DNA from: Sulfuritalea hydrogenivorans sk43H
Lineage (GTDB): Bacteria > Pseudomonadota > Gammaproteobacteria > Burkholderiales > Rhodocyclaceae
Reading direction: 5' to 3'
NCBI GenBank assembly: GCA_945870205.1
Contig: CAMBRI010000013.1
Span: 1-40,102, forward strand
DNA length: 40,102 nucleotides
In this document: positions 8,010 to 40,102 of the stretch, piece after piece
Layout: every line of letters begins with the position of its first letter
Position numbering within the stretch: position 1 is the first letter of the stretch
Notes under the pieces: generated by a model
What the model saw: the letters and a program-made list of their open reading frames with translations, nothing else
What the model was told of the DNA's origin: nothing
The model's database searches: none
Program-made: the position numbers and the translations under genes

Positions 8010-8016
8010 GTACCCA

Positions 8017-10561: not shown

Positions 10562-12903
10562 CACGCCTTCTCCACGCTCAGAACCGCGCACATCGCACCC
10601 AGTGCAACGGTATCTGCATGCGCCGCCGCAATGCGCACTACGCCGTCGGGCAGGCCGGTGTCGAGTTCGGCCGAAAGCGTCACCGTCGCCGCACCGCCGG
10701 TTCCTACTCTTGCGCGATCACCAGCGACCAATCCAAGCTTTCCCAATGTCGCCGCATTCATGCGCGCGGTGGGTGCCGCGGAATCGGTCGCCTGCTGCAG
10801 GGAGGGTGCGCGACGTACCAGCGCATCGGCAAAGTGAATCGGTACGTCGGCCACTCGCTCGACGCCGTTGATGGACGTGTTCAAATTCAGCTCGGCCAGG
10901 TCGATGCCGTTGTCCAGTCCCGATACAAAGTCGGGCTTGCCTGCCAGCGCTTCGCTGCGCACATCCTCGCTGCTGTTGAATTCGAACCCCGGCATGTCGA
11001 GTAGGTTGCCCAGCACGCGCAACACCTTCCAGGCCGGACGTGTTTCGCCCAAGGGCTTGGCGGCGGCGAAGAAACTCTGCACGCGCCCTTCGGTATTGAT
11101 GAAGGTGCCGGACGTTTCCGAGAACGGCGACACCGGTAACAGGACGGCTGCATAATCGAGCATGGCCTGGGACTTGAAGGAAGTCAGGACCACGACTGCC
11201 GCTGCCTTGCCCAGACTGGCCAAAGCTTGCGCACCGTCCGCGCAATCGAATTCGGGCTCGGCGCCCAGTACGACGTAGGCATGGCGCGGATCCTTGAGCA
11301 TCGCCGCGGCACCGAGGCCAGCCGCTCCCGGCGTCGCCTTGCCCACGTAGCCGCCGACGCTGTTGGCAGCCTCGCCGAGGAAACCGAAGCGGCCGCCGAG
11401 GGCGGCTGCCAACTGGCCAGCCAGCGCCTGCAGGGTTGCCGCCTGAGGATGCTGCTGGGCGAAGTTGCCGAGTAGAACAGCGCTGCCGCCATCGCTGCCC
11501 GATGCCAGGCTCTGAGCGATGGCTTGCGCCTCGGCCGACACCGTAACAGCGGCCAGAGCTGTGTCGGAGGCCGTGCCCTTGAGGGCGCAGACCGCCTTGA
11601 CCACCTGGCCCAGCAGGGCCGGCAGTTGCGACGGCGCAGCGATGGCGCGCGCCGTCAGTTTGATCAACAGGTCGTCATCGGCACTGTGCAGCACGCTGAT
11701 CTGTGCGCCACGCTTGGCCGACTGGCGCAGGCGCTGGGCAAGCAGCGGATGGTCCTTGCGCAGGAAGGAACCAACCACCAGTACGCGGTCGAGCTTAGCG
11801 ATATCGGCGATCTTCATGCCCAACCACGGCGTTCCGCGACGGTGCCCGTCGGCGGAGAAGTCGCTCTGACGCAGGCGAAAATCGATGTTCTCGCTGCCCA
11901 TGCCACGCAGCAGTTTCTGCGCCAGATACATTTCTTCCAGTGTCGCGTGCGGACTCAGCAAACCACCAATGGCGGCGCCGCCGTGAGTCTTGGCCACGTC
12001 GCGCAATGCATGTGCGGCATAGTCGAGAGCAACGCTCCAGTCGACCTCCACCCATTGGCCACCCTGCTTCACCATCGGCTTGGTCAGCCGCGCGCTCGAA
12101 CTCAGGCCCTGGTAGGAGAATCGCTCCTTGTCAGTCAGCCAGCATTCGTTGATGTCTTCGTTTTCGAGCGGCAGCACGCGCATCACTTTGTCATGCTTGG
12201 TCTGCACGATCAGGTTGCTGCCCAGACCATCATGCGGGCTCACCGATTTGCGCCGGGATAGTTCCCAGGTGCGCGCCGAAAAACGGAAGGGCTTCGACGT
12301 CAATGCGCCAACTGGGCACAGATCGATGATGTTGCCCGAGAGTTCCGTATTTACGGTCTTGCCGATGAAGGGCATGACTTCGGCACGTTCGCCGCGATAG
12401 GACTGGCCGAGTTCCATGAAGCCGGCTATCTCCGCCGTGAAACGGATGCAGCGCGTGCAGTTGATGCAGCGGGTCATGTCGGTCGACACCAGCGGACCGA
12501 GATCCTTGTCGGGCACGACGCGCTTTTCTTCCTCGTACTTCGAGGCGGACTCGCCGTAACCGACCGCGAGATCCTGCAACTGGCACTCGCCGCCCTGATC
12601 GCAGATCGGGCAATCCAGCGGGTGGTTGATCAGCAGGAACTCCATCACTGCCTTCTGTGCCTTGACGGCCAGATCGGAGTGGGTGAATACCTTCATGCCC
12701 TTGGTCACCGGCGTGGCGCAGGCCGGCATCGGCTTTGGCGCCTTTTCGACCTGGACCAGGCACATGCGGCAGTTGGCCGCGATGGACAACTTCTTGTGGT
12801 AGCAGAAGTGCGGTATGTAGGTGCCCAACTGATGGGCCGCCTCGATGATGGTGCTGCCCTCGGCAACCTCCAGCGTCTTGCCGTCGATCTCGATCTCGAC
12901 CAT
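10561..12903 (-). CDS. nuoG: NADH-quinone oxidoreductase subunit G (iron-sulfur, molybdopterin-fold)
   Basis: This is the 780-residue large peripheral-arm subunit. The N-terminal domain binds the 2Fe-2S cluster N1b through C34, C45, C48 and C62. The His-ligated cluster N5 uses H94, C98, C101 and C107, and cluster N4 uses the CINCTRC motif at C146, C149 and C152 plus a later cysteine near [10 protein letters not shown]. The remaining two thirds is a molybdopterin-oxidoreductase fold. In this family that fold has no cofactor and serves a structural role. The part after about residue 430 is Ala-rich and less conserved. The ATG overlaps the nuoF stop by one base (TAATG). Confidence 0.96.
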
Positions 12904-14246
12904 TACACGGTCCCCGCTGTTGCTGATGCGCTGAAGAAGCCACTGCCCGCGCGCTGCACGTCAGGATCGACGAGGCACTTCTTGTGCTCGATGTGATACT
13001 CGAATTCGCTCTTGAAATGCTTTATGAAACTGCGTACCGGAAATGCGGCGGCATCAGCCAGCGCGCAAATGGTCTTGCCCATCATGTTGTCCGTCACGCG
13101 ATTCAGCAGATCGAGATCTTCGGGGCGACCCTCGCCGTGCTCTATCCGATGGACCACGCGATACAGCCAGCCGCTGCCCTCGCGACAGGGCGTGCATTGG
13201 CCGCAGGATTCCTCGAAATAGAAGTAGGACAGTCGCTCCAGCGCCTTGACCATGCACACGGTTTCGTCCATCACGATCACCGCACCCGAGCCAAGCATCG
13301 AGCCGGCCTTGGCAATCGAGTCGTAGTCCATGGTGCATTCCATCACGACGTCGGCCGGTAGTACCGGGGCCGAGGAACCGCCGGGGATCACCGCCTTGAG
13401 TTTGCGCCCGCCGCGCATGCCACCAGCCATTTCCAGCAGTTTCGCAAACGGGGTGCCCATCGGGACTTCATAGTTGCCGGGACGATTGACATGGCCCGAG
13501 ACGGAGAATAGCTTGGTGCCGCCGTTGTTGGGCTTGCCCAGATTCAGGTAGGCCTCGCCGCCCATGCCGAGGATGAAGGGGATCGCGGCAAAGGTTTCGG
13601 TGTTGTTGATCGTGGTCGGCTTGCCATACAGGCCGAAGTTCGCAGGAAAAGGCGGCTTGAAACGCGGCTGCCCCTTCTTGCCTTCGATGGATTCGAGCAG
13701 GCCGGTTTCTTCGCCGCAAATGTAGGCACCCCAGCCGTGATGCGCAAAGAGGTCGAAGCTGAAGTCGGAGCCAAGAATATTGTTGCCGAGATAGCCGGCG
13801 GCGCGTGCCTGGTCGAGTGCTTCCTCGAAACGCTGGTAGATCTCGAAGATCTCGCCGTGGATATAGTTGTAACCGCGCTTGGCACCCACCGCATAGCCGG
13901 CGATGATCATGCCCTCGATGGTCGAATGCGGATCGAAGCGCAACAGATCGCGGTCCTTGAAGGTGCCCGGTTCGCCCTCGTCGGTGTTGCAGACGACGTA
14001 CTTTTCCGGCGCCGCCTTGGGCATGAAACTCCACTTGAGGCCGGTCGGGAAACCGGCGCCGCCGCGACCGCGCAGGACTGACTTCTTGACCTCGGCGATC
14101 AGGTCGTCCTGGCTCATCTTGCTGGAAAGAATCCGCTTCAGCTGGGCATACCCGCCGCGAGCTTCGTAGTCCTTGAGACTCCAGCCAGCGTCGCCCTTGG
14201 CCCAACCGGTGGTGAGCAGCGGATTGATGGTGTCGATCAGAGCCAT
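12903..14246 (-). CDS. nuoF: NADH-quinone oxidoreductase subunit F (NADH- and FMN-binding)
   Basis: This 447-residue subunit is the entry point for electrons. It binds NADH and FMN and carries cluster N3. The glycine-rich [11 protein letters not shown] (residues 59-69) forms the nucleotide/FMN site, followed by the conserved [14 protein letters not shown] region. The 4Fe-4S motif [12 protein letters not shown] gives C348, C351 and C354, with the fourth cysteine about 40 residues later in [12 protein letters not shown]. Length and motif spacing are normal. The gene begins one base after the nuoE stop region and ends overlapping nuoG by one base. Confidence 0.97.
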
Positions 14247-28335: not shown

Positions 28336-30057
28336 TCAGCAGCGACGGATCAAAAGCAGCGTAATGTCGTCCGACTGAGGCTGTGACCCGGCAAAATTAT
28401 CGACAGCGGCAACGATACCCTGCACCGTGCCGGCCACATCCGACCGGCTACCGGCCAGCAACTGCTGCATCGCCTCTTCGCCGAACTGGGCAGCATCGAC
28501 CGCCTCGGCCTCGGTTACGCCGTCCGTGTAGAGCAACAGCCGACTGCCGCTCGGAAACGCAATCCTGCCGACCTTGAACGCCAGATCCGGCACCATCCCC
28601 GCGATCGGGTTGCGTGGCTGCTCGAGGAACACCGGCGCGGCGCCGGGCAGCTCGATCAATGGTGCGTTGTGGCCGATATTGACGTAGTGCAGGAAACCGC
28701 TGTCAAGATCCAGGATCGCGCAGAAAACCGATACGAACAGCTGCGCCTCATTGGAAGCGGCCAGTTGGTCATTGACATGGCGCGCGAGCCCCGCCAACTG
28801 AGCGCCCGGGTCCTGTTCGCGGCGGGCCGCTTCGCTGCGCAACAAGGTCAAGGCCTGAACCATGAACAGCGCCGCCGGCATGCCCTTGTTGCAGACATCG
28901 CCGATCGCAAAGAAAAAGCGATCCGGTCCCTGTGGCAGGACATCGTAGAAATCGCCGCCCACCTGGCGCGCCGCACGCATGAAGCCGTGACAATCAAGGC
29001 CACTTGCGCCGGCGAGGAGCGGATTACCGGGGAGCATGCTGGCTTGGATGCGACGCGCAAAATCGAGTTCGCGCTGCAACGCCTCGAGTTCCATGGCCCC
29101 GCGAATACGGGCAACAATGCGCTCGTTGCCGCGGCGCATGCGCTCGGCGAGCATGACAATCAGGTTGCGGCCAATGCGCGGAATGGCCAGCAGCCGCTCA
29201 AGGAACACGGGGCCCTCGATTACCAGCAGCAAAGTCGCCTCCGCCGTCGCAACCCAGGCAGACGCCGGCTTTCCGTCCGCGACGGAAAGTTCCCCCACAC
29301 ACTGGCCAGTCGGGATATCCACCGCATCTTCGGAGTTCGGGCCACCAAGGTGTACGCGAAGGCTGCCCTTGACGACGACCAAGACCGAGTGCAGCGGTTC
29401 ATCCGCCCGCAGCACTACGGCACCCGCCGGATACTCCACCAGACGGCAGCGCCCGAGTATCTCCTCCAGGGCCATGTAGGGGACGTCGCGAAACAAGTCG
29501 CAGCGCGAGATGAATCCAAGGGAACGGCGATCGATGTCGGAACGCTGCTCATCGGTGATCAAGGCGCCGTCGGCACGCTCGAGCGGAAAGCCGTTGAGCC
29601 CTGACCGCCGCCGGTCCACGCGCCGCGGCAGTTCCTGCACATCGCCAAAGCCGGCAGTAAAGAAATTTTTCTTCTGCCGGCGTTCGTAATGACAAACATC
29701 CGCGAACTGTCGCACCAGATGCACGCCGAGGCCGCCAACGCGAGCGTCGTCAAGCGACTTTGCCTGCGTCGGCGGAGCAAGATCCAGGGGATTGAACGCG
29801 GGACCGGAATCAGCGACGGTGAGCAGCAGGGTCTCGGGGCTGACCGTCAATTCCAGTTCAATTTCACCAGGCCCCCCGCCATAGGCATAGTCGACCACAT
29901 TGTTGATGAGTTCGATGATGCACAGGTCAAGGTCGCCGGTACGTTCGGCCGGAACACCATGCTGCGCGGCCAGGGTACGCGCCCAGATACTCGCCTCGCC
30001 AGCCGCGGCGAGTCCGCTTTCGAGCATCAGCAGGTGATGCTTCGCCGACTCCGGCAT
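28336..30057 (-). CDS. Fused anti-sigma-type kinase / cyclic nucleotide-binding / PP2C (SpoIIE) phosphatase
   Basis: This is a 573-residue signalling protein with three domains. Residues about 10-140 form an RsbW/SpoIIAB-type HATPase (IIELINNVVDYAYGG, VADSGPAFNP, GGLGVHLV). Residues about 188-300 form a cyclic-nucleotide-binding fold (VVVKGSLRVHL, GQCVGELSVADG). After a helical linker, residues about 355-572 form a PP2C/SpoIIE Ser/Thr phosphatase with metal-binding D369 (VGGDFYD), D387 (IGDVCNKG), D512 (TDGVTE) and D563-D564 (SDDITLL). The STAS gene lies one base upstream, so kinase and phosphatase activities towards that STAS protein are likely. It converges with the di-heme gene, only six bases apart. 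Confidence 0.87.
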   Translation of the reverse strand: MPESAKHHLLMLESGLAAAGEASIWARTLAAQHGVPAERTGDLDLCIIELINNVVDYAYGGGPGEIELELTVSPETLLLTVADSGPAFNPLDLAPPTQAKSLDDARVGGLGVHLVRQFADVCHYERRQKKNFFTAGFGDVQELPRRVDRRRSGLNGFPLERADGALITDEQRSDIDRRSLGFISRCDLFRDVPYMALEEILGRCRLVEYPAGAVVLRADEPLHSVLVVVKGSLRVHLGGPNSEDAVDIPTGQCVGELSVADGKPASAWVATAEATLLLVIEGPVFLERLLAIPRIGRNLIVMLAERMRRGNERIVARIRGAMELEALQRELDFARRIQASMLPGNPLLAGASGLDCHGFMRAARQVGGDFYDVLPQGPDRFFFAIGDVCNKGMPAALFMVQALTLLRSEAARREQDPGAQLAGLARHVNDQLAASNEAQLFVSVFCAILDLDSGFLHYVNIGHNAPLIELPGAAPVFLEQPRNPIAGMVPDLAFKVGRIAFPSGSRLLLYTDGVTEAEAVDAAQFGEEAMQQLLAGSRSDVAGTVQGIVAAVDNFAGSQPQSDDITLLLIRRC

Positions 30058-30058
30058 C

Positions 30059-30403
30059 TCAGGTGCCGGCGATCGCTGCCCGTGCGGATTCGACGTCGGC
30101 GTACACCGGAATCAGTTGATCGATGCCGGCAGTCTGTATGACTTTCATCACGGGTTGCTGGGCGGCGGCAAGCACCAGATGGCCGCCACGCCCCTTTTGT
30201 CCGCGCGCTGCGGTCATCAGGAGGCGAATGCCGATCGATGCCAGAAAACTGACCCCCGCCAGATCGACCACGATATTCGCCTTGCGACCGGTGGCCAAAA
30301 AGGAGAAGCGGGCATCGATAGCCTGTGTGCCATCGATGTCCAAGCGGCCCTCAAGGGCAATTCGTTGTACGTCGCCCTCAAGTGCGCCTGTGTCGAACTT
30401 CAT
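30059..30403 (-). CDS. STAS-domain anti-sigma factor antagonist
   Basis: This 114-residue single STAS domain belongs to the SpoIIAA/RsbV type. The segment VDLAGVSFLASIGIRLLMTAA contains S56, which aligns with the phosphorylated serine of SpoIIAA (DSSG region, here ASIG). The core length is standard. It is cotranscribed with the HATPase-cNMP-PP2C gene (one-base gap), forming a compact partner-switching unit: the HATPase domain may phosphorylate S56 and the PP2C domain may remove the phosphate. No sigma factor is encoded nearby, so the output is unknown. The 105-base gap to pstB upstream shows no clear promoter. Confidence 0.87.
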   Translation of the reverse strand: MKFDTGALEGDVQRIALEGRLDIDGTQAIDARFSFLATGRKANIVVDLAGVSFLASIGIRLLMTAARGQKGRGGHLVLAAAQQPVMKVIQTAGIDQLIPVYADVESARAAIAGT

Positions 30404-30508: not shown

Positions 30509-31327
30509 TCAGCCAAAACGACCCGTGATGTAGTCTTCCGTCGCCTTCTTCTGCGGCTTGATGAAGATCTGGTCGGTGACGCCGAACTCGACCATCTCGC
30601 CGAGGTACATGTAGGCGGTGTAGTCCGAGATGCGCGCCGCCTGCTGCATGTTGTGGGTGACGATGAGGATGGTGACCTTTTCCTTCAGTTCGATGATCAG
30701 TTCCTCGATGCTGGCCGTGGCAATCGGGTCGAGCGCAGAAGTTGGCTCATCGAACAGGATGATCTCGGGATCGGAGGCCAGGGCGCGGGCAATGCACAGA
30801 CGCTGCTGCTGGCCGCCGGAAAGATTGGCGCCGAGTTCCTTGAGGCGGTTGCTGACTTCGTTCCACAGCGCGGCGCCCTTGAGCGCCGACTCGACGCGGT
30901 CATCGAGTTCATTCTTGTTGCGCATGCCGCGCACGCGCAGGCTGTAGGCGACGTTCTCGTAAATCGACTTGGGGAAGGGATTGGGCTTCTGGAACACCAT
31001 GCTGATGCGCATCCGCACTTCGATTGGATCGACATCGGGCGCCAGCAGATTGGTGTTGTCCGGGTAAAACACAATGCCGCCACCTGCGTATTTGTTGCCG
31101 GGATAGAGGTCATGCATGCGATTGAAACAACGCAGCAGGGTAGACTTTCCGCAGCCGGAAGGGCCGATCAGCGCCGTCACCATGTGGTCATGGATCGGCA
31201 TCGAGACCCGCTTCAGCGCATGGAAGGCGCCGTAGTAGAAATCCAGATCGCGGACATCGGCCTTGAGCACGGCGCCTTCGACACCCGCCGCCAATCCGGT
31301 GCTGGGTATTTGCATGGGGTTCACCAT
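30509..31327 (-). CDS. pstB: Phosphate ABC transporter ATP-binding protein
   Basis: This 272-residue ATPase drives high-affinity phosphate import. Walker A is GPSGCGKST (55-63), the ABC signature is LSGGQQQR, Walker B is [12 protein letters not shown], and the H-loop lies in [10 protein letters not shown]. The NRMHDLYPG and [17 protein letters not shown] segments are PstB-specific. The ATG at 31327 overlaps the pstA stop (ATGGTGA); a second ATG four codons later is also possible. It is the last gene of pstSCAB. No phoU follows; the next gene on this strand is the STAS gene. Confidence 0.96.
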
Positions 31328-32247
31328 TTGATGTTTTTGCGCAGTTGATAGCGCAGGTAGATGGCCAGGCCGTTCATGGCCAGGGTCATGAAAACCAGGA
31401 CGAATCCCGCTGCAGCGGCATTGAGAGTAAAGGCCGCCTCGGGGCGCGAGGTCCAGTTGAACATCTGGATCGGCATTACCGTGAAGGGAGCGAAGATCCA
31501 GTCGAACATTCCGGCCGGTGGATCGCCGGCAAACGGCGGCGTCGGCAGGAAGGCGATGAAGGTCAGGGCGCCGATGGTGATGATCGGCGCCGTTTCGCCA
31601 ATGGCACGAGCCATGCCAATGATCACGCCGGTAAGTATCCCGGCCGACGAATACGGCAGGATGTGGTCGCTGACCGTCTGCCAGGTGGTCGCGCCGCAGG
31701 CGTAGGACCCCTCGTGGATCGACTGCGGAATGGCGCGGATCGCCTCGCGGGTGGCGACGATGATCACCGGCAGGATCAGCAGTGCCAGCGTCAGGCCGGC
31801 AGTAAGGATGCTCTGGCCAAAGCCGAAGTAATAGACGAAGAGGCCCAGCGCCAGCAGACCATAGACGATGGACGGGATGCCGGCCAGGTTGCTGATGTTG
31901 ATTTCGATGATGTCGGTCATCCAGTTCTTCGGCGCGTACTCTTCGAGATAGACGCCGGCGGCGACGCCCAGCGGCACGGCGGACAAGGCGGTCACCAGCA
32001 TGACGAGGATGGTGCCGACCCAGGCCGAGAGGATGCCGGCATTTTCCGCCCGGCGCGACGGGAAGGATGTGAAGAAATCGTAGCTCAGGCGCGGTACCCC
32101 CTGGATCGCCATGTCGATGAAGAGCACGACAAACGTGAGAATGCCGAGCATCAGCGAGAGGATGCCGAGCACAGAAAAGATCAGGTCCCAGCGCTTGGCG
32201 CGCGTGATGATGGCGCGGATTGCGTCGAGGTCGGCGGCTTTCATCAT
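31321..32247 (-). CDS. pstA: Phosphate ABC transporter permease PstA
   Basis: This 308-residue inner-membrane permease has about six helices. The start [13 protein letters not shown] leads into a hydrophobic helix. The EAA-type loop contacting PstB is in [20 protein letters not shown], and the [16 protein letters not shown] helix is a PstA mark. It starts one base after the pstC stop and overlaps pstB by seven bases, so expression is coupled. Confidence 0.95.
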
Positions 32248-32248
32248 T

Positions 32249-33202
32249 TCAATACACCTCGCGGTAGCGCTTGCGCAGCCAGTAGCCGAGCAGGTTGAAG
32301 GCCAGCGTCATTAGCAGCAGGGTCAAGCCGGCGGCGAAAATGGTCTGGTAGCCGATCGAGCCGTGCGGCAGGTCACCCAGCGCCACCTGGACGATGTAGG
32401 AGGTGATGGTCGCCCCCGGTTCGGCCGGGTTGAAGGTCAGGTTGGGCTGCATCCCTGCCGCAACGGCGAGGATCATGGTCTCGCCGACGGCGCGCGAAAT
32501 GCCGAGGATGTAGGCTGAGGCGATGCCCGAGGTTGCCGCGGGAGTGACCACCCAAAGGGCGGTCTGCAGTCGCGTTGCACCCATGGCGTAGGAACCCTCG
32601 CGCAGGGCCATGGGCACTGCGCGCATGGCATCTTCCGAGAGCGACGCAACATAGGGAATGATCATGATCCCCATGACAAGGCCGGCCGACAGCAGGTTGA
32701 AGCCAGGCAGGTCGGGGTAAATTTTTTGCAGGATGGGCGTCAGGAAGGTCAGGGCGAAATAGCCATAAACGATGGTCGGCACGCCACCCAGCAGTTCGAG
32801 GAAGGGCTTGGCGATCTCGCGTACCTTGAATCCGGCGAATTCGGACAGGTAGAGCGCGATGATGGTGCCCAGCGGAATCGCCACCACCAGGGCCACGGCG
32901 GAACTGGTCAGGGTGCCCGAGAGCAGCACCATGATGCCGTAGTGGGCGTCGTCAAACAGCGGCGTCCATTGCGTATCGAAAAGGAAATCGGACAAGGGCA
33001 CGGTCTGGAAGAATACCCAGGATTCCTTGACCAGGACGTAGACGATGGCCACGGTGACGAATACCGAGAAGGCCGCCGCCGCGAACAGCATGGCCTCGAT
33101 GATGCGTTCCTTGACGTGGCGCGAGGCCTTTTTGCTCAGGCGATCACTGATGCCAGCGCCGATGGACGCGGAAAGGGGGGGCGCAGACGCGCTTGCACTC
33201 AT
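32249..33202 (-). CDS. pstC: Phosphate ABC transporter permease PstC
   Basis: This 317-residue permease, the partner of PstA, has about six to seven helices. Marks are PLGTIIALYLSEFAG, LGGVPTIVYGYFALTF, the ATPase-contacting loop AMRAVPMALREGSYAMGAT and ILGISRAVGETMILAVAAGM. The N-terminal 30 residues are Ser/Ala-rich and cytoplasmic. It is separated from pstS by 79 bases that contain a strong hairpin. Confidence 0.95.
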   Translation of the reverse strand: MSASASAPPLSASIGAGISDRLSKKASRHVKERIIEAMLFAAAAFSVFVTVAIVYVLVKESWVFFQTVPLSDFLFDTQWTPLFDDAHYGIMVLLSGTLTSSAVALVVAIPLGTIIALYLSEFAGFKVREIAKPFLELLGGVPTIVYGYFALTFLTPILQKIYPDLPGFNLLSAGLVMGIMIIPYVASLSEDAMRAVPMALREGSYAMGATRLQTALWVVTPAATSGIASAYILGISRAVGETMILAVAAGMQPNLTFNPAEPGATITSYIVQVALGDLPHGSIGYQTIFAAGLTLLLMTLAFNLLGYWLRKRYREVY

Positions 33203-33281: not shown

Positions 33282-34268
33282 TTACTCCTTCGGGTTACGC
33301 TTCAGCAGATCGGCCACCTTGACGCCCACTTCGGCAACGCCGCCGAAGGCAGTGCCGGTCTTTTTCTTGCTGAAGTTCTCCAGCGCGTGCTTGTAATCGG
33401 CAGCACCCAGCGGCACGTATTTGACTTCCTTGGCCAGTTTGCCGCCCTCCTTCAGGTAGAACTCGACGAATTCCTTGACCTCGGGCTTATCCATCGACTT
33501 GGCGCTGACATAGATGAAAATCGGACGCGCCAGCGGCTCATATTCGCCCGCCATCACGGCATCGATCGACGGCGTCACGGCCTTGCCCTTGGGGTTGACG
33601 ATAGGCACCGCCTTCAGCTTGCCCTTGTTTTCGTCGTAGTAGGCGAAGCCGAAAAAGCCCAGCGCATTGTTGTCGCGCGATACGCCCTGCACCAGCACGT
33701 TGTCGTCTTCCGAGGCGGTAAAGTCGCCGCGACTGGATTTGGCCTTGCCGTTGATGGCTTCGGTGAAGTAATCGAAAGTGCCGGAATCGGCGCCGGGGCC
33801 GAAAAGCTTGAGCGGCGCGTCGGGCCAGGCCGGGTTGATCTGGTTCCACTTGGTGATCTTGCCCTGGGCGCCCGGCTCCCACATCATTTTGAGCTCGGCA
33901 ACGGTGAGTTGCTTGATCCAGGTGTTCTTCGGATTTACCACCACGGTCAGGGCGTCGAAGGCCACCGGCAGTTCGACGTACTTGATACCGGCCTTGGCGC
34001 ACTCTTCCATTTCCTTCGCCAGGATCGGACGCGAGGCGTCGGAGATATCAATCTCGCCACGACAGAACTTCTTGAAGCCGCCGCCCGTGCCGGAAATACC
34101 CACGGTGACGCGGACGCTGCCTTTCTTGGCCTTCTGGAAATCTTCGGCAACCGCCTCGGTGACCGGAAACACGGTCGAGGAACCGTCGATCTTGATCAGT
34201 GCCTGGGCATGAACAGCCGTGGCGGCGAAAACACCGGCGACGACGGCAGCAATTTTCATGGATTTCAT
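33282..34268 (-). CDS. pstS: Periplasmic phosphate-binding protein PstS
   Basis: This 328-residue binding protein has a signal peptide ending in VHA before QALIKIDGSSTVFP. The phosphate site is built from GSSTVFPVTEA, the ISGTGGGFKKFCRGEIDISDASRP segment (key part SGTGGGF and DASRP) and PGADSGTFDYFTEAI. It captures phosphate for the PstCAB transporter. AAAGGGG upstream is a good ribosome binding site. The first gene of pstSCAB, it is divergent from the lipid gene cluster and preceded by a Pho-box-like repeat. Confidence 0.96.
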   Translation of the reverse strand: MKSMKIAAVVAGVFAATAVHAQALIKIDGSSTVFPVTEAVAEDFQKAKKGSVRVTVGISGTGGGFKKFCRGEIDISDASRPILAKEMEECAKAGIKYVELPVAFDALTVVVNPKNTWIKQLTVAELKMMWEPGAQGKITKWNQINPAWPDAPLKLFGPGADSGTFDYFTEAINGKAKSSRGDFTASEDDNVLVQGVSRDNNALGFFGFAYYDENKGKLKAVPIVNPKGKAVTPSIDAVMAGEYEPLARPIFIYVSAKSMDKPEVKEFVEFYLKEGGKLAKEVKYVPLGAADYKHALENFSKKKTGTAFGGVAEVGVKVADLLKRNPKE

Positions 34269-34322: not shown

Positions 34323-34341
34323 TGTTACAAAGCCGTTAAAC
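34323..34341 (-). promoter_or_regulatory. Candidate Pho box in the pstS / plsC intergenic region
   Basis: On the minus strand, TTTAAC and TGTAAC recur with an 11-base period (plus-strand GTTAAA at 34335-34340 and GTTACA at 34324-34329). Pho boxes consist of 7-base repeats at this spacing, with TGT-A cores. The site ends 55 bases before the pstS ATG, and TAGACT or TATATC further down could serve as the -10. The match to CTGTCAT is partial, so this is tentative. The 144-base gap holds no other gene and no clear promoter towards plsC. Confidence 0.42.
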
Positions 34342-34412
34342 CCGGCGCTGAATTGGACTTTTTCGCCAGCGAGGGTCATCGGCCTGTAACGCGGTACGCC
34401 TATCCTTCTCTG

Positions 34413-35252
34413 ATGACTACGCTACTTGTCCGCCTTCGACTGCTGCGGATCGGCCTTCACCTACTGTCAGGCACACTCCAGGCGGCGGTTCTGTTCCGCC
34501 TGGGGGGCGCTCCCTGGCGACTGCGCCTCAAGCGCGCCTGGTCGCGCCAGCTTCTGGCGCTGCTGGGCATCCGGATCGAGTCTGGCGACGACCTGGCCGG
34601 CGTCGAAAGCGGCCTGCTGGTTGGCAATCACATCTCCTTCATCGACATTTTCGTCATCAACGCCCTGCTTCCCTGCGCCTTCGTAGCCAAGAGCGAGGTC
34701 GGGCAATGGCCGCTGATCGGCTGGCTCAGTCGCCAGACCGATACCGTGTTCATCGAACGCGGCAGCCGCAAGGCGGCCCACCACACCCACCAGCAAATGC
34801 GCCATGCCTTCGACGCCGGTCTGCGTCTGGCCATCTTTCCCGAAGGCACCACCACCGCGGGCGACACGCTGCTGCCGTTTCATGGCGCGCTGTTCCAGAG
34901 CGCCATCGACGCCGCCGTGCCAGTACATGCGGTTGCGCTGAGCTACCACGATGCCGGCGGGGCACGCTCGGAGGCACCCGCCTACATTGGCGATATCAGC
35001 CTGATCGACTGCCTGACGAGCGTTCTCCAGGCCGGCGGACTGGTCGCCCGAGTGAACCTGGCGGCCAGTTTCGTCCCACCACTGCCCGATCGCCGTCATC
35101 TTGCCCACCGCGCCCATCAGGCGGTGGCGACGGCTCTGGCATTTTCACGCGAACCGCTACGCACACCCGCATCCGATCCATGGAACAGAGGGCAAAACCC
35201 GTCCGATGGCGCTGCGCAATGCCTCCGTAATGAAGCCGCAATGAGCCCGTAA
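34413..35252 (+). CDS. PlsC-family lysophospholipid/lyso-ornithine lipid acyltransferase (OlsA-like)
   Basis: This 279-residue membrane-associated acyltransferase has the HX4D catalytic motif GNHISFID (H73, D78) and the substrate-binding motif FPEGTTT (142-148). VFIERGSRK, between the two, is motif II. The family makes phosphatidic acid from lysophosphatidic acid; the OlsA branch acylates lyso-ornithine lipid. The gene directly upstream of an OlsB-like acyltransferase is often OlsA, which supports that role here. The ATG at 34413 was chosen. A TTG 20 codons earlier gives an extension with no conserved features. It is the first gene of the six-gene lipid operon. Confidence 0.82.
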   Translation: MTTLLVRLRLLRIGLHLLSGTLQAAVLFRLGGAPWRLRLKRAWSRQLLALLGIRIESGDDLAGVESGLLVGNHISFIDIFVINALLPCAFVAKSEVGQWPLIGWLSRQTDTVFIERGSRKAAHHTHQQMRHAFDAGLRLAIFPEGTTTAGDTLLPFHGALFQSAIDAAVPVHAVALSYHDAGGARSEAPAYIGDISLIDCLTSVLQAGGLVARVNLAASFVPPLPDRRHLAHRAHQAVATALAFSREPLRTPASDPWNRGQNPSDGAAQCLRNEAAMSP

Positions 35253-35303
35253 CGCCGGGTTTCGACAATGCAGGCGAACCCCACGAGCCAAAAGGAGAAC
35301 GCC

Positions 35304-36077
35304 ATGCAAAAACAACTGATCGAAAACACGGCTGCCAGCCAGCACGTAGGCTACAGCGTTACGCTGGCACGCAGCGAAGAAGAAGTTCGTGAAGCGCAGC
35401 GCCTGCGCTACAAGGTGTTTGTCGAGGAACTAGGCGCCCGCATCCCGGCGTCCGTGCCATATCACGACATCGACCTCTACGATCCGTTCTGCGAGCACCT
35501 GATCGTGCGCGAAAGCCATGCAGACAGGATTGTAGGTACCTACCGCATCCTGTCCCCGGATGCAGCGCGCCGTATCGGCAACTACTACTCGGAAAGCGAG
35601 TTCCGCATCAACCGGCTGCAAAACCTGCGCAGCCGGATGGTGGAAGTCGGTCGTTCCTGCATCCATCCGGACTATCGCAGCGGCGCGGTCATCACCCTGT
35701 TGTGGGCCGGACTCGCCGAATACATGGTGAACAACAACTACGAGTACCTGATGGGCTGCGCCTCGATCGGCATGGCCGACGGCGGGCACAATGCCGCCAA
35801 CCTGTTTGCCCAGCTGGATGCGAGCCAGATTGCCCCGGCAGAATACCGCTGCTTTCCGCAGCATGGACTGCCCTTCGAGCGGCTGACCAATGGCCAGCCG
35901 GCGCTGATTCCACCGCTGATCAAGGGCTACCTGCGAGTCGGCGCCTGGGTTTGCGGCCAGCCCGCCTGGGATCCTGATTTCAACACCACCGACCTGCTGA
36001 TGCTGCTGCCGATGTCCCGCATGAATCCGCGCTACATGCGTCACTTCATCAAGACTGCGGATCCGGTGGCGGCATGA
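35304..36077 (+). CDS. olsB: GNAT-fold acyltransferase, OlsB-like (L-ornithine N-acyltransferase)
   Basis: This 257-residue protein belongs to the OlsB/hemolysin-like acyltransferase family. Recognisable parts are EAQRLRYKVFVEELGA (35-50 region), YDPFCEHLIVRE, VGTYRIL, the serine-rich ESEFRI and EVGRSCIHPDYRSG, which is the acyl-ACP/GNAT core. LMGCASIGMADGG and PLIKGYLRVGAWVCGQPAWD are typical of the C-terminal half. OlsB transfers a 3-hydroxyacyl group from ACP to ornithine, giving lyso-ornithine lipid, the substrate of OlsA. The ATG at 35304 has AAAGGAG at good spacing. The stop overlaps the following glycosyltransferase gene (ATGA). Homologous acyltransferases in exosortase clusters are an alternative, but no exosortase gene is seen. 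Confidence 0.75.
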   Translation: MQKQLIENTAASQHVGYSVTLARSEEEVREAQRLRYKVFVEELGARIPASVPYHDIDLYDPFCEHLIVRESHADRIVGTYRILSPDAARRIGNYYSESEFRINRLQNLRSRMVEVGRSCIHPDYRSGAVITLLWAGLAEYMVNNNYEYLMGCASIGMADGGHNAANLFAQLDASQIAPAEYRCFPQHGLPFERLTNGQPALIPPLIKGYLRVGAWVCGQPAWDPDFNTTDLLMLLPMSRMNPRYMRHFIKTADPVAA

Positions 36078-37354
36078 GCATCGCCAAAGTCACACCGGGA
36101 CTTGACCTGCACGGCGAGACGCGTGCCTTGACGCCGCGCGCCGGTCGACCGCTGCATGTGCTGATGATCAGCGACGTCTATTTTCCACGCATCAACGGCG
36201 TCTCGACCTCGATGCAGACCTTCCGCGCCAGCCTTGCCGCGCTCGGCATCCGGGTCACGGTGGTGGCGCCCGCCTATCCGGGCACTGACGACGCCGCCGA
36301 TGCCGCGGCGGGCATAGTCCGCCTGCCCGCGCGGGCCGTGCCACTGGATCCGGAAGATCGCCTGATGCAGTGGAGCGCCCTGGCCGACCTGGATCGCCGC
36401 CTGGCGCAACTGGACATCGACCTGGTGCATGTGCAGACCCCGTTCGCCGCGCATTACGCCGGCCTGCGCTTCGCAAGAGCACGCGGCATACCTTGCATTG
36501 CCACCTACCACACGCATTTCGAAGAATACCTGTTCCATTACATACGCTTCCTGCCCAGGGGTGCACTGCGCGCTGCCGCCCGCTGGCTGGCCCGGCACCA
36601 ATGCAACGCGCTCGACGCCGTCGTGGTGCCGTCGCAGCCGATGGCCGCCACCCTGCACGACTATGGCGTCAGCACGCCCTTGCACGTGATTGCCACCGGA
36701 TTGCCTGAATCCCAGTTCGTGCGCGGCGATGGCAGGCGTTTTCGCCAGGCCTGGAGCATCGCGCCGGAACGCAAGGTGGCACTCTTCGTCGGCCGCGCCG
36801 CATTTGAAAAGAACATCGGCTTCCTGCTGGAGATGACGGCTTTGGCTCGCGAGCAACAGCCGCGGCTGTTGCTGGTAATTGCCGGCGAAGGCCCTGCCTT
36901 GCCGGCCTTGCGCCGGCAGGCGGCGACCCTGCGCGTCGAAGATCACGTGCGCTTTGTCGGCTACCTGCCACGCGACCACGGCCTGCGTGATTGCTACGCC
37001 GCTGCCGACGTCTTCACCTTCGCCTCGCAAACCGAGACGCAGGGTCTGGTGCTGCTCGAAGCCATGGCCATAGGACTGCCCGTGCTGGCCATCCCGGCGC
37101 TGGGCGCCGCCGAAATCATCAACCCGGCGCGAGGCGCGATCCCTGGCGCGGAAACCCCCGATGGATTTGCCGAGCAACTGCTGGGACTGCTCAACCGGCC
37201 CACCAAGATGCTGATCATGGCGGACGAGGCCATCGCCTTCGCCCGCGAATGGGATGCCGGAACGCAGGGCGCCCGGCTTGCCGCGCTGTATCGCCAACTG
37301 CTGCGCGCCCCGCGCGCAATCGACTGTTCGCTGGCCGTGTCCGCCAACCCATGA
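36074..37354 (+). CDS. GT4 glycosyltransferase (candidate diacylglycerol glycosyltransferase)
   Basis: This 426-residue protein is a GT-B fold retaining glycosyltransferase. The N-terminal domain begins after a 26-residue leader with HVLMISDVYFPRINGVSTSM, the acceptor-side loop of lipid glycosyltransferases. HTHFEEYLFHYIRFLP and LHVIATGLP are also typical. The C-terminal donor domain has ALFVGRAAFEKNIGFLLE and the E-x7-E motif E321-E329 (ETQGLVLLE). The gene is coupled to olsB and dgkA by four-base overlaps. In phosphate-starved bacteria such GT4 enzymes make glycosyl-diacylglycerols (Agt family). The sugar donor and the acceptor are not determinable from sequence alone. Confidence 0.85.
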   Translation: MSIAKVTPGLDLHGETRALTPRAGRPLHVLMISDVYFPRINGVSTSMQTFRASLAALGIRVTVVAPAYPGTDDAADAAAGIVRLPARAVPLDPEDRLMQWSALADLDRRLAQLDIDLVHVQTPFAAHYAGLRFARARGIPCIATYHTHFEEYLFHYIRFLPRGALRAAARWLARHQCNALDAVVVPSQPMAATLHDYGVSTPLHVIATGLPESQFVRGDGRRFRQAWSIAPERKVALFVGRAAFEKNIGFLLEMTALAREQQPRLLLVIAGEGPALPALRRQAATLRVEDHVRFVGYLPRDHGLRDCYAAADVFTFASQTETQGLVLLEAMAIGLPVLAIPALGAAEIINPARGAIPGAETPDGFAEQLLGLLNRPTKMLIMADEAIAFAREWDAGTQGARLAALYRQLLRAPRAIDCSLAVSANP

Positions 37355-37740
37355 ATACCGACCCTGTCGTCGAAGAAAGCCCCTTCAAGGGCCAAACCGG
37401 CCTGCGCCGGATCTGGAATGCCTTCAGCTATTCGCTATCCGGACTGCACGCGGCCTACCTCAACGAGGATGCCTTCCGTCAGGAGAGTCTGCTCGCCGCG
37501 CTGTTGATTCCCACCGCGCTGCTAATGCCCCTGCCGGGGCTCGCCAAGGCCTTGATGATCGCCAGCGTGTTGCTGGTGCTCATCGTCGAACTGCTGAACT
37601 CGGCCATCGAGGCGGCCATCGACCGCATTTCACTGGACCACCATCGCCTGTCCAAGCGCGCAAAGGACATCGGCAGTGCTGCCGTGCTGATCGCCCTTAT
37701 CAACGTGCTGACCACCTGGTCGCTGGTGCTGCTCGCATGA
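37351..37740 (+). CDS. dgkA: Diacylglycerol kinase
   Basis: This 129-residue, three-helix membrane kinase phosphorylates diacylglycerol to phosphatidic acid. ELLNSAIEAAIDRI (E80 to I93) includes the catalytic glutamate and the conserved NSAIE. HRLSKRAKDIGSAAV is the second signature. The amphipathic N-terminal helix and the AYLNEDAFRQE loop match E. coli DgkA. It lies between two glycosyltransferase genes, overlapping the first by four bases and ending eight bases before the second. In this setting it would recycle diacylglycerol that is not glycosylated. Confidence 0.95.
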   Translation: MNTDPVVEESPFKGQTGLRRIWNAFSYSLSGLHAAYLNEDAFRQESLLAALLIPTALLMPLPGLAKALMIASVLLVLIVELLNSAIEAAIDRISLDHHRLSKRAKDIGSAAVLIALINVLTTWSLVLLA

Positions 37741-37747
37741 TATCGGC

Positions 37748-38938
37748 ATGACCCCGTCACTCCATATCGCCGTCGTCACCGAGACCTACCCGCCGGAGGT
37801 CAATGGTGTTGCCATGACGCTGGGCCGCATGGTGCAGGGCCTGCTGGCGCGCGGACATCGCATCAGCCTGACGCGGCCGCGCCAAGGGGCCCAAGACGTA
37901 GCGGATAGCGGCATGCAGTTGACCACAACGCTGGTGCGCGGGCTGCCGATTCCCGGTTACGCAGGCCTGCGCTTCGGCCTGCCGGCAACGCGGCTATTGC
38001 GCCGCCAGTGGCGCGCCGAGCGGCCTGATGTGGTGCAGGTCGTCACCGAAGGTCCGCTGGGAGCCTCGGCCATTGCAGCAGCGCGCGAACTGGGCATCCC
38101 GGTCATCTCCGAGTTCCACACCAACTTCCACGCCTATAGCCGCCATTACGGATTCGGCTGGCTGGAAGGCCTGGTCAGCGCCCATTTGCGGCGCCTGCAC
38201 AACCGCAGCCAGATGACCCTGGTACCTTCCCACCAGCTTGGAATAGACCTCATGCGCCGGGGCTACCGCGGCGTTCGCGTGGTGGCCCGCGGTGTCGACG
38301 CCGCGCTGTTCAACCCGGCGCGCCGCAGCGAAGCGTTGCGCGCGAGCTGGGGCGCCACCGAAAATGACCTGGTGGTCGCTCATGTCGGCCGTCTGGCGCC
38401 CGAAAAAAACCTGCCATTGCTGCTCTCCAGCTTCGCTGCGATCCGCCCCCACGCGCCCGGCGCGCGCCTGCTGCTGGTGGGCGACGGACCGGCGCGCAAG
38501 CGTCTGGAGCAACAAAATCCCGAACACATTTTTGCCGGCATGCGCCACGGCGAGGACCTTGCAGCCCACTATGCCTCGGCCGATATCTTCCTGTTCCCGA
38601 GCCTGACCGAAACCTACGGCAACGTCACTCTCGAAGCACTGGCCAGCGGCCTGCCGGTAGTGGCCTATCGCATGGCGGCAGCTGCCGAACTGATCCGCGA
38701 CGGCCATAACGGCATGCTGGCCGAACCGGGCGCCAGCGCCGAGTTCGTCCGTGCCGCACTTGATCTGCTTACCCGCCCCGGCGCTCGGCATCGCGCCGCC
38801 ACGGCAGCGCCGCAAAGCGTTGCCGCGCTGGACTGGGACCTCATCCACGACAGACTTGTGGCGGCGCTGCGCGATGCCATCGCCCTCTCCGCGATCGCGG
38901 CGGCGAGCGAATCCGCCTACCACTTCGTGCCGGACTAA
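37748..38938 (+). CDS. GT4 glycosyltransferase, second (Agt/SqdX-like)
   Basis: This 396-residue GT-B enzyme has the N-terminal signature VVTETYPPEVNGVAMTL, typical of SqdX/MgtA/Agt-type lipid glycosyltransferases. EFHTNFHAYSRHYGFGWLEG follows at the acceptor side. The donor domain has VVARGVDAALFNP, AHVGRLAPEKNLPLLL and the E-x7-E pair E288-E296 (ETYGNVTLE). It is less than 40% like the preceding GT4 by eye, so the two are not a recent duplication. It sits five bases before the PlcP-like gene, the neighbour of agt in several Proteobacteria. A role in adding sugar to diacylglycerol or to a glycolipid is likely but inferred. Confidence 0.85.
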   Translation: MTPSLHIAVVTETYPPEVNGVAMTLGRMVQGLLARGHRISLTRPRQGAQDVADSGMQLTTTLVRGLPIPGYAGLRFGLPATRLLRRQWRAERPDVVQVVTEGPLGASAIAAARELGIPVISEFHTNFHAYSRHYGFGWLEGLVSAHLRRLHNRSQMTLVPSHQLGIDLMRRGYRGVRVVARGVDAALFNPARRSEALRASWGATENDLVVAHVGRLAPEKNLPLLLSSFAAIRPHAPGARLLLVGDGPARKRLEQQNPEHIFAGMRHGEDLAAHYASADIFLFPSLTETYGNVTLEALASGLPVVAYRMAAAAELIRDGHNGMLAEPGASAEFVRAALDLLTRPGARHRAATAAPQSVAALDWDLIHDRLVAALRDAIALSAIAAASESAYHFVPD

Positions 38939-38943
38939 CGCTC

Positions 38944-39795
38944 ATGCACGTCCGCTCAATCTTCATTTCCGATGTTCATCTGGGCACCCGCGCCTGCCAG
39001 GCCGACCGCCTGCTCGACTTCCTGCGCGATTACGAAAGCGACAATCTGTTCCTGATCGGCGACATCATCGACTTCTGGTCGATGAATCGCGGCATCCACT
39101 GGACCCCGGCGCAGAACACCGTCGTGCAAAAAATCCTGCGCCGCGCCCGCCACGGCCAGCGCGTGATGCTGATTCCGGGCAACCACGACGAGGCCATGCG
39201 CGAGTACGACGGCGTATCCTTTGGCGACATAGAGGTCAGGCTCGAACACATCCACCTCACCGCCGATGGCAAGCGCTACCTGCTGCTGCACGGCGACGAG
39301 TTCGACCAGGTCACGCGCTATCACCGCTGGCTGGCGGTGATCGGCGATGTCGGCTACGATCTGCTGGTGCGCCTCAACGCTTCGCTGTCACGATTGCGCC
39401 GACTGCTGCGCCGCCCCGGCTACTGGTCGCTGGCCGGCTACGCCAAGAGCCGTGTCAAGCGCGCGGTTTCCTTCGTCTTCGACTTCGAGGATTCGCTGAT
39501 TCATGCCGTTCGTGAGCGCGGGCTGGACGGCGTGATCTGCGGCCACATCCACAGCGCGGCCCTGCGCCCGGTCGGCGACGTGGTCTATGTCAACTGCGGC
39601 GACTGGGTAGACAGCTGCACCGCGATCGTCGAGCACCACGACGGCCGGCTGGAGCTGATACGTGCCTGGCAGGCGGTAGCCGCGCCCGTCGCGGCACCTG
39701 CAGCGGCTGCCGCTGGCACCGCGTCGCCAACGCCGATTTTCGATGATTTGCCGCAAACCGGGCTCGCCTGCGGCGCGAAAATTGCACCACTGTAA
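38944..39795 (+). CDS. plcP: PlcP-like metallophosphoesterase (phospholipase C type; LpxH-related fold)
   Basis: This 283-residue calcineurin-like phosphoesterase has metal ligands in SDVHLG (D10, H12), GDIID (D40, D43), GNHDE (N80, H81), LLHGDEFD and CGHIHSA (H201, H203). IFISDVHLGTRACQADRLLD, the central PGYWSLAGYAKSRVKRAV and GDWVDSCTAIVEHHDG are marks of the PlcP family described in Sinorhizobium and Agrobacterium, which converts phospholipids to diacylglycerol under phosphate starvation. The protein is often labelled UDP-2,3-diacylglucosamine hydrolase because of the shared fold. A variable Ala-rich tail follows residue 240. The gene order next to a GT4 gene supports PlcP. Enzyme activity is inferred, not shown. 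Confidence 0.75.
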   Translation: MHVRSIFISDVHLGTRACQADRLLDFLRDYESDNLFLIGDIIDFWSMNRGIHWTPAQNTVVQKILRRARHGQRVMLIPGNHDEAMREYDGVSFGDIEVRLEHIHLTADGKRYLLLHGDEFDQVTRYHRWLAVIGDVGYDLLVRLNASLSRLRRLLRRPGYWSLAGYAKSRVKRAVSFVFDFEDSLIHAVRERGLDGVICGHIHSAALRPVGDVVYVNCGDWVDSCTAIVEHHDGRLELIRAWQAVAAPVAAPAAAAAGTASPTPIFDDLPQTGLACGAKIAPL

Positions 39796-39854: not shown

Positions 39855-40102
39855 ATGACCCAACAAATCGCCCTGAAGCTCGAGATCGCCGAAGACCGCC
39901 ACGGCGCTCTGCTGCGGCATTCGGTGCTGGCCAGGGCAGCCGCGCGCGAGCATCACCACCTGGTCAGCATCTACTACGACACCGGGCGCATGGCGCTGCG
40001 CCGCGCCGGGATCCTGTTGCGCCTGCGCAAGCACGGCGCCTCGTGGCAGCAAACGGTCAAGCGTCAGGAGGATTCGGACGGCGGCCTGACGCGCCGGCCG
40101 GA
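39855..40102 (+). CDS. CYTH-domain protein, partial (cut by window end)
   Basis: Eighty-two codons are visible from the ATG at 39855. The YYDTGRMALRRAGILLRLRKHG segment and WQQTVKRQ are typical of CYTH domains (inorganic triphosphatase/adenylyl cyclase class IV family). The N-terminal ExExK metal-binding motif reads QIALK, so both acidic residues appear replaced. A CHAD domain often follows in such proteins, but it lies outside the window. The gene starts 60 bases after the plcP-like gene and may be part of the same transcript. Confidence 0.8.
   Translation, partial: MTQQIALKLEIAEDRHGALLRHSVLARAAAREHHHLVSIYYDTGRMALRRAGILLRLRKHGASWQQTVKRQEDSDGGLTRRP

What the first reader, a model, noticed from the sequence alone, without database searches (positions are those of the whole stretch)
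34413..39795. A complete phosphate-sparing membrane-lipid remodelling operon beside pstSCAB
Six tightly packed genes encode PlsC/OlsA, OlsB, two GT4 enzymes, DgkA and a PlcP-like phosphoesterase. Known families: PlcP makes diacylglycerol from phospholipids, Agt-type GT4 enzymes glycosylate it, and OlsB/OlsA make ornithine lipids; all are phosphate-starvation responses in other bacteria. Finding both phosphorus-free lipid routes plus diacylglycerol recycling in one operon, divergent from pstS, is unusual and suggests one coordinated unit.
Basis: partly seen in the sequence, partly recalled or inferred. Interest (0 to 1): 0.82.

Follow-up and report, generated by a model that had tools for sequence, protein, structure and literature searches.

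The report
Phosphate-sparing membrane-lipid operon beside phosphate transporter
Six packed bacterial genes next to a phosphate importer look like a switchable kit that strips phosphate from membrane lipids and replaces them with sugar- and ornithine-based lipids; the parts belong to known kinds, but the arrangement and one sugar-transferring enzyme are new variants worth testing.

Summary
In detail: six + strand genes (34413-39795, gaps -4 to +15 bp) diverge from pstSCAB. They are OlsA-type, OlsB-type, a GT4 enzyme (GT4a), DgkA, a second GT4 (GT4b) and a PlcP-type phosphoesterase. The phosphoesterase is not LpxH: 48% identity to Sinorhizobium and Pseudomonas PlcP-type proteins, 21-24% to LpxH; a true LpxH lies elsewhere. 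GT4b shares a clade with, and is 52% identical to, Pseudomonas Agt2, a glucuronosyl-diacylglycerol synthase. GT4a belongs to a separate, widespread clade with no characterised member among the rows compared, often beside PlcP. A PHO-like box with a -10 element precedes the operon and is kept in five of five kin; the genome (a draft near Sulfuritalea) encodes PhoB. Most likely this is a PhoB-driven operon making ornithine lipids and, through PlcP and diacylglycerol, glycolipids, with DgkA returning spare diacylglycerol to phosphatidate. The pathway is known, so this is a new variant. The gathering is less exceptional than claimed: a genome of another order has GT4b-PlcP-GT4a-OlsB-OlsA in tandem, and two genomes have OlsA divergent from PlcP-Agt1-DgkA-OlsB. 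Open: GT4a's product, DgkA's purpose, and any lipid change, which was not testable.

The parts
34373..34390 (+). PHO-box-like direct repeat GGGTCAT-N4-CTGTAAC upstream of the lipid operon
   Evidence: 10 of 14 positions of CTGTCATNNNNCTGTCAT; 31 of 1000 shuffles reach this on the + strand; 9-10 of 14 at the same offset in 5 of 5 kin
34401..34406 (+). -10-like TATCCT, 10 bp after the box
   Evidence: read from sequence; CTA..CT kept in the kin alignment
34324..34341 (-). possible PHO-like repeat facing pstS (weak)
   Evidence: 7 of 14 only; stretch nearly invariant in 6 of 6 sequences
34413..35252 (+). OlsA-type lyso-ornithine lipid O-acyltransferase (PlsC superfamily)
   Evidence: best NCBIfam models are OlsA, 135 and 132 bits, below cut-off 300; acylglycerol-phosphate acyltransferase domain model 95 bits (cut-off 103), full-length PlsC model 42; nearest to OlsB-adjacent acyltransferases, own paralogues at most 61 bits
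35268..36077 (+). OlsB-type ornithine N-acyltransferase (likely start 35304)
   Evidence: PF13444 123 bits; OlsB models 183 and 180 bits, cut-offs 320/350; only PF13444 match found in the genome; 38% identity to a S. meliloti homologue
36074..37354 (+). GT4a: GT4 glycosyltransferase of a PlcP-linked clade without a characterised member in this analysis
37351..37740 (+). DgkA, diacylglycerol kinase
   Evidence: PF01219 110 bits; PDB diacylglycerol kinase 3ze3 111 bits with VELLNSAIEA kept; second, weaker copy on contig C67
37748..38938 (+). GT4b: Agt2-type diacylglycerol glycosyltransferase (probably glucuronosyl)
   Evidence: 52% identity over 381 aa to P. aeruginosa Agt2, 35% to Agt1; clade with Agt2 97/87
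38944..39795 (+). PlcP-type phospholipase C (metallophosphoesterase)
   Evidence: 48% to S. meliloti and P. aeruginosa PlcP-type proteins, 21-24% to LpxH; GNHDE in place of GNRDF; tree
33282..34268 (-). pstS, divergent neighbour
   Evidence: TIGR02136 313 bits over cut-off 207
30509..33202 (-). pstC, pstA, pstB
   Evidence: ORFs read and named from their translations, no family search; homologues beside the operon in L003 and L006

Best explanation
This is a PhoB-activated operon for replacing phospholipids by phosphorus-free lipids. At low phosphate PhoB binds the box at 34373-34390 and drives olsA-olsB-GT4a-dgkA-GT4b-plcP while pst is induced from the other side (inferred from box, conservation and PhoB in the genome). 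OlsB and OlsA make ornithine lipids from acyl-ACP (family knowledge). PlcP cuts phospholipids to diacylglycerol and a phosphorylated head group (family knowledge). GT4b transfers glucuronic acid, perhaps also glucose, to diacylglycerol (inferred from Agt2). GT4a makes a second glycolipid, most likely a neutral hexosyl-diacylglycerol or the next sugar on it (inferred; weakest step). DgkA phosphorylates diacylglycerol that outruns the two transferases, preventing its build-up and letting lipids return to phospholipid synthesis when phosphate comes back (inferred).
For: Packed order with 4-bp overlaps, conserved in kin. PlcP-type, not LpxH. GT4b with Agt2 in the tree, and Agt2 itself shows the same three best NCBIfam models as GT4b. 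GT4a next to PlcP in 12 of 71 PlcP loci of the order, in four families, plus a gammaproteobacterial plasmid and 7 of 29 GT4a loci read elsewhere in the class. PHO-like boxes of 10 or more of 14 upstream of PlcP in 45 of 71 loci, 4.6 expected from shuffles and 5 of 71 in coding controls; 11 or more in 20 of 71, 0.42 expected, 0 of 71 in controls. Box conserved in kin; PhoB over its cut-off. P. aeruginosa Agt1/Agt2 biochemistry and the plcP mutant (PMC8528852, passages); joint PHO control of PlcP, DagK, OlsA, OlsB stated for P. putida (PMC5082522, passages).
Against: No expression or lipid data for this organism. The window box alone is modest (31 of 1000 shuffles). OlsA and OlsB models score below their equivalog cut-offs, and an acylglycerol-phosphate acyltransferase domain model reaches 95 bits, just under its cut-off of 103. 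The window PlcP lies outside the clade of the two PlcP references. Many genomes have the transferases but no PlcP match (26 of 55 other strong GT4b genomes, 22 of 40 other GT4a genomes), so they do not depend on PlcP everywhere. Boxes of 11 or more upstream of GT4a are few (1 of 14, 2 of 29), upstream of OlsB 3 of 14. DgkA is missing from the operon in one kin contig (L005), and 4 of 4 DgkA genes upstream of GT4b that were scanned have no good box (7-9 of 14). The DagK of the P. putida paper may be another kinase family than DgkA.
Confidence: 0.85

Rival explanations
1. The phosphoesterase is a second LpxH and the GT4 genes belong to LPS or exopolysaccharide synthesis; olsA, olsB and dgkA are chance neighbours.
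For: The annotation 'UDP-2,3-diacylglucosamine diphosphatase' is attached to such genes in public records; weak LpxH model matches of 41-44 bits.
Against: Scores far below the LpxH cut-offs, a true LpxH elsewhere at 227 bits, 21-24% identity and GNHDE for GNRDF; the S. meliloti and P. aeruginosa PlcP-type proteins give similarly weak LpxH scores, 38-55 bits; GT4a and GT4b lie apart from 4 E. coli and 12 own GT4 rows.
Confidence: 0.03
2. GT4a does not work on the PlcP product in parallel with GT4b but adds a second sugar to GT4b's or another monoglycosyl lipid (a diglycosyl-diacylglycerol synthase), or uses another acceptor such as phosphatidylglycerol.
For: GT4a is a clade of its own (100/100). 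It stands beside an Agt1-type gene in 3 of 29 class loci (L231, L244, L248); one of these, read at full length as L252, is PlcP-Agt1-GT4a. It co-occurs with GT4b in 35 of 40 other GT4a genomes. A GlcNAc-phosphatidylglycerol synthase model and an alpha-monoglucosyl-diacylglycerol synthase model score alike (117 and 115 bits). plcP next to transferases of which one makes di- and triglycosyl lipids is on record (PMC4796936, passages).
Against: In the order, GT4a and Agt1-type genes never share the PlcP neighbour slot (0 of 71 loci), as if one stands in for the other.
Confidence: 0.35
3. DgkA serves ordinary phosphatidate homeostasis (diacylglycerol from osmoregulated-glucan synthesis, recalled) and its place in the operon has no role in the starvation response.
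For: DgkA stands within 6 kb of GT4b in 22 of 149 other genomes, of which only three (G067, G106, G111) also have PlcP within 6 kb of DgkA (shortened DgkA list); no good PHO-like box upstream of DgkA in 4 of 4 such loci scanned (7-9 of 14); absent from the operon in L005.
Against: PlcP-Agt1-DgkA in six loci plus two with OlsB after it (L198, L200, L201, L203-L205; L126, L127), PlcP-GT4a-DgkA in others (L116, L117, L221, L225, L242); PHO control of a DagK stated for P. putida.
Confidence: 0.25

Closest known systems
PlcP-Agt lipid renovation of Pseudomonas aeruginosa (PA3219-PA3218, PA0842)
   Same: PlcP, an Agt2-type transferase, PHO-like box, ornithine lipids made in the same response (PMC8528852 and PMC9804370, passages)
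   Different: There plcP-agt1, agt2 and olsBA lie at separate places and the PlcP partner is Agt1; here GT4a takes a second transferase place, and dgkA, olsA and olsB share the operon
plcP-glycosyltransferase gene arrangements of marine bacteria, six types (PMC4796936)
   Same: plcP next to lipid glycosyltransferases with Pho boxes (passages)
   Different: The passages read name btaAB and glycosyltransferases as neighbours, not olsBA with dgkA
PHO-dependent PlcP, DagK, OlsA, OlsB of Pseudomonas putida BIRD-1 (PMC5082522)
   Same: The same functional set under phosphate control (passages)
   Different: Locus tags put olsAB (PPUBIRD1_0974-0975) and plcP (PPUBIRD1_1390) at separate places; no GT4 named in the passages; DagK may not be the DgkA family
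OlsB/OlsA ornithine lipid synthesis
   Same: Both enzymes, adjacent
   Different: Order olsA-olsB here, and joined to the glycolipid genes

Membership tests
PlcP (lipid-remodelling phospholipase C) | closer to PlcP-type proteins of S. meliloti and P. aeruginosa than to LpxH | tested here: met
   48% / 48% against 21-24%; tree with LpxH outgroup, 100/100. The references were identified by neighbours (AHL-synthase and LuxR-type genes; PlcP-Agt1 pair), locus names recalled
PlcP (lipid-remodelling phospholipase C) | inside the clade holding the two PlcP references (not a defining feature of the activity) | tested here: not met
   Outside that clade (100/99), probably its sister (84/6, weak). Hence called PlcP-type
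PlcP (lipid-remodelling phospholipase C) | Mn-dependent cleavage of phospholipid to diacylglycerol | not testable with these tools
   assay needed
LpxH | TIGR01854 above cut-off 190, GNRDF motif | tested here: not met
   41 bits; GNHDE
Agt2-type diacylglycerol glycosyltransferase (GT4b) | clade with P. aeruginosa Agt2 | tested here: met
   97/87 with Agt2, 96/99 with an Acinetobacter homologue added; Agt2 identified by its plcH-plcR-cerN neighbours
Agt1-type (GT4a) | clade with Agt1 and alphaproteobacterial homologues | tested here: not met
   separate clade, both 100/100
Agt / SqdX | sugar donor and diacylglycerol acceptor | not testable with these tools
   assay needed; SqdX sequences not compared
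OlsB | NCBIfam OlsB equivalog cut-off | tested here: not met
   183 and 180 bits under 320/350, but best hits by far, next family (OlsF) 63 bits; hence called OlsB-type
OlsA | NCBIfam OlsA equivalog cut-off | tested here: not met
   135 and 132 bits under 300; hence called OlsA-type
OlsA | OlsA models ahead of PlsC models; next to OlsB | tested here: met
   135/132 against 95 (acylglycerol-phosphate acyltransferase domain) and 42 (full-length PlsC); five homologues from other genomes score the same way
DgkA | PF01219 and similarity to solved DgkA | tested here: met
   110 bits, 111 bits to 3ze3
Pho regulon | PHO box, PhoB in genome, induction at low phosphate | tested here: inconclusive
   box and PhoB found; induction not testable

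The most novel reading that the evidence does not exclude
GT4a founds a third, uncharacterised class of PlcP-linked glycolipid synthases, matched in 42 of 150 genomes of the order (one at 35% identity only) and 40 of 369 sampled in the class, making a phosphorus-free lipid that Agt1 and Agt2 do not make. The operon then works as a two-way diacylglycerol valve: PlcP and two transferases push one way, DgkA the other, all under one PhoB switch. The same set has apparently come together more than once.
Probability: 0.3. Interest if true: 0.65.

Novelty: new variant of a known kind. Interest (0 to 1): 0.5.

Why it matters
It points to lipid remodelling as a widespread betaproteobacterial trait, shows which genes travel together, and names one widespread enzyme clade (GT4a) whose product can be found with a simple assay. 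It also makes a plain question testable: why would a phosphate-starved cell keep a kinase that puts phosphate back on diacylglycerol in the same transcript as the enzyme that takes it off?

Tried and rejected
LpxH identity of the phosphoesterase, and a polysaccharide role of the GT4 pair: rejected. A structure model of GT4a from six near kin came out at mean pLDDT 44 and was not used. 'GT4a strictly replaces Agt1' was my reading after (0 of 71 shared slots, Fisher p 0.0002, families not independent); two searches showed both side by side elsewhere in the class, so it was lowered. The sigma-70 and terminator scan showed no site at the operon start. The pstS-facing repeat is weak (7 of 14). PHO-like boxes upstream of GT4a alone are hardly enriched (10 or more: 4 of 29, 2.3 expected; 11 or more: 2 of 29, 0.22 expected).

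Rows left out of counts: I entered DgkA rows for 92 of the 116 other genomes with a match (most rows under about 105 bits dropped), left out one OlsB row and one GT4a row (35% identity each), and set apart 11 weak GT4b rows as Agt1-like. One search used 71 of 72 non-own PlcP places (one fragment not fetched; one fragment among the 71). The GT4 tree used 68 of 98 de-duplicated rows. The PlcP tree left out one fragment by choice and one GT4a-linked row through a length filter. Searches used mononucleotide shuffles; only one search kept dinucleotides.
Full report
What is there. Six + strand genes fill 34413-39795 with gaps of 15, -4, -4, 7 and 5 bp. They diverge from pstS-pstC-pstA-pstB on the - strand (pstS by model). 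Pfam gives Acyltransferase, Acetyltransf_5, two GT4 proteins, DAGK_prokar and Metallophos. The genome is a draft, probably a MAG (4.44 Mb, 391 contigs, 85% complete). Its nearest kin by OlsB are L003 and L004 (93%) and L005-L008 (80-88%); four of these six contigs are labelled Sulfuritalea, two uncultured beta proteobacterium.

Conservation. Among the six kin contigs L003-L008, three hold all six genes in the same order beside pst genes (L003, L004, L006). L007 holds five up to its contig end. L005 lacks DgkA. L008 holds five, with its best OlsA-like match 43% alike and elsewhere, and a less alike pst set upstream. L004's PlcP matches in two pieces and its GT4a stretch holds a stop. The other 16 OlsB contigs (L009-L024) show no GT4 or PlcP match in the fetched flanks; 10 of the 16 have an OlsA-like gene directly next to OlsB.

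The phosphoesterase. It scores 41 bits with the LpxH model, cut-off 190, while a true LpxH at 227 bits lies on contig C39. It is 48% identical to a Sinorhizobium meliloti protein that stands beside AHL-synthase and LuxR-type genes (L058), which I take for the characterised PlcP (locus name recalled). It is also 48% identical to a P. aeruginosa protein followed by a glycosyltransferase (L059), the PlcP-Agt1 pair described in PMC8528852 (passages). Identity to E. coli and own LpxH is 21% and 24%. It has GNHDE where LpxH has GNRDF. In the tree it is well apart from LpxH (100/100), but outside the clade with both PlcP references (100/99), probably as a sister of that clade, though the joining branch is weak (84/6).

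The two glycosyltransferases. GT4b is 52% identical to the P. aeruginosa GT4 directly downstream of plcH-plcR (L063), which I identify as Agt2 from those neighbours. PMC8528852 reports Agt2 making glucuronosyl-diacylglycerol and Agt1 making monoglucosyl-diacylglycerol (passages). GT4b and Agt2 share a clade, 97/87, and Agt1 with alphaproteobacterial homologues forms another, 100/100. GT4a forms a third, 100/100, with a Pseudosulfitobacter plasmid protein as its nearest outsider (99/95); it holds no characterised protein among the 68 rows. None of the three contains the 4 E. coli polysaccharide or LPS enzymes or the 12 rows for other own GT4 proteins; branches to those are long, so their exact placement is unsure. 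The three best NCBIfam models of GT4b (GlcNAc-PG synthase first, monoglucosyl-DAG synthase second) are the same as those of Agt2 itself.

OlsA, OlsB, DgkA. The first gene's best models are the two OlsA ones, 135 and 132 bits, both under their cut-off of 300; an acylglycerol-phosphate acyltransferase domain model follows at 95 (cut-off 103) and the full-length PlsC model at 42. Its nearest relatives are acyltransferases adjacent to OlsB; own-genome paralogues reach at most 61 bits. Five such homologues from other genomes show the same ranking. OlsB is the only PF13444 protein found in the genome, 38% identical to an S. meliloti homologue, with models under cut-off. DgkA matches the solved diacylglycerol kinase at 111 bits; a second, weaker copy lies on contig C67.

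Regulation. The 144-bp gap to pstS holds GGGTCATCGGCCTGTAAC, 10 of 14 to the consensus CTGTCATNNNNCTGTCAT given in PMC8528852 and PMC11828411 (passages), then 10 bp and TATCCT. 31 of 1000 dinucleotide shuffles do as well on that strand. In five of five kin the same place scores 9 or 10. PhoB is present at 349 bits, cut-off 296. Over 71 PlcP loci of the order, 45 have a box of 10 or more upstream (4.6 expected from shuffles, 5 of 71 in coding control), and 20 have 11 or more (0.42 expected, 0 of 71 in control). So PlcP genes of the order are, as a group, probably phosphate-controlled. GT4b has boxes of 11 or more in 6 of 11 scanned loci from genomes without a PlcP match and in 3 of 3 with one; OlsB in 3 of 14 and GT4a in 1 of 14. 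This suggests that Agt2-type enzymes are used under phosphate control without PlcP too, and agrees with the report that a P. aeruginosa plcP mutant still makes some glucuronosyl lipid (PMC8528852, passages).

How the modules are spread. In 150 genomes of the order, matches were found to PlcP in 70, GT4b in 66 (55 others strong), GT4a in 42, OlsB in 100 and DgkA in 117 (at differing E-value limits; own genome included; strong count). Of 71 PlcP loci, 33 have an Agt1-type gene within 600 bp, 12 GT4a (two of these also GT4b), 1 GT4b alone and 25 none (five of the 25 have GT4b within 5 kb); never Agt1 with GT4a. Four or more of the six kinds lie within 5 kb in six loci: L115, L116, L117, L126, L127, L133. 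L116 and L117, of the same family, run PlcP-GT4a-DgkA-GT4b, in L116 with about 1.5 kb between GT4a and DgkA. L126 and L127 have OlsA divergent from PlcP-Agt1-DgkA-OlsB. In 369 genomes sampled from the class GT4a is found in 40, the own genome included. Of 29 loci read, 7 have PlcP beside it, 4 DgkA, 4 GT4b, 3 Agt1 and 2 OlsB. L249, of another order, repeats PlcP-GT4a-DgkA-GT4b, and L250 has GT4b-PlcP-GT4a-OlsB-OlsA in tandem. L252 has PlcP-Agt1-GT4a, against a simple replacement of Agt1 by GT4a. The window operon is thus one of several gatherings of the same modules.

Mechanism. Best reading: PhoB switch, ornithine lipids by OlsB/OlsA, phospholipid to diacylglycerol by PlcP, glycolipids by GT4b (glucuronosyl) and GT4a (product unknown), spare diacylglycerol back to phosphatidate by DgkA. 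Shown here: gene identities to subfamily level, order, conservation, box. Taken from family knowledge: the reactions. Inferred: induction, GT4a's product, DgkA's purpose.

Literature. Six searches were made and passages of eight papers were read (PMC4796936, PMC8528852, PMC9239053, PMC5082522, PMC9804370, PMC8231724, PMC13086504, PMC11828411). In these I saw no description of olsAB, dgkA, two GT4 genes and plcP in one operon, nor of the GT4a clade. The library holds open-licence papers only and I read no paper whole, so absence is weak evidence. PlcP, DagK, OlsA and OlsB are reported as PHO-dependent in P. putida; that DagK may be another kinase family than DgkA.

Verdict. It is a new variant of a known kind. 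GT4a and the captured DgkA are the parts worth a bench test.

Noticed in passing
34401-34415: The -10-like TATCCT lies 6 bp before the olsA ATG, and an ATG stands at the matching place in 6 of 6 aligned sequences: the transcript may start at or next to the start codon (leaderless).
   Followed up: partly
39855-40102: A CYTH-domain gene starts 59 bp after plcP and follows it in five of five kin contigs that reach so far; the full-length copy in L003 is CYTH plus CHAD, a combination linked to polyphosphate (recalled).
   Followed up: partly
28336-30403: Next to pstB: a STAS-domain protein and a fused HATPase/cNMP-binding/SpoIIE phosphatase, kept in L006; looks like a partner-switching regulator.
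   Followed up: no
L059, L063: Chromosomal-looking segments with plcP-agt1 and with the agt2 region occur on P. aeruginosa plasmid records.
   Followed up: no
L058, L066: Record CP090106.1, titled S. meliloti pSymB, is 3.7 Mb and carries genes I would expect on the chromosome; the label may be wrong.
   Followed up: no
L071, L074, L075, L077, L082, L083: GT4b has PHO-like boxes of 11-12 of 14 in genomes without a PlcP match (6 of 11 scanned): source of diacylglycerol unknown.
   Followed up: partly
351-14246: The left part of the window carries complex I (nuo) genes and a LuxR-type two-component pair on the - strand (ten ORFs of the window tested).
   Followed up: no
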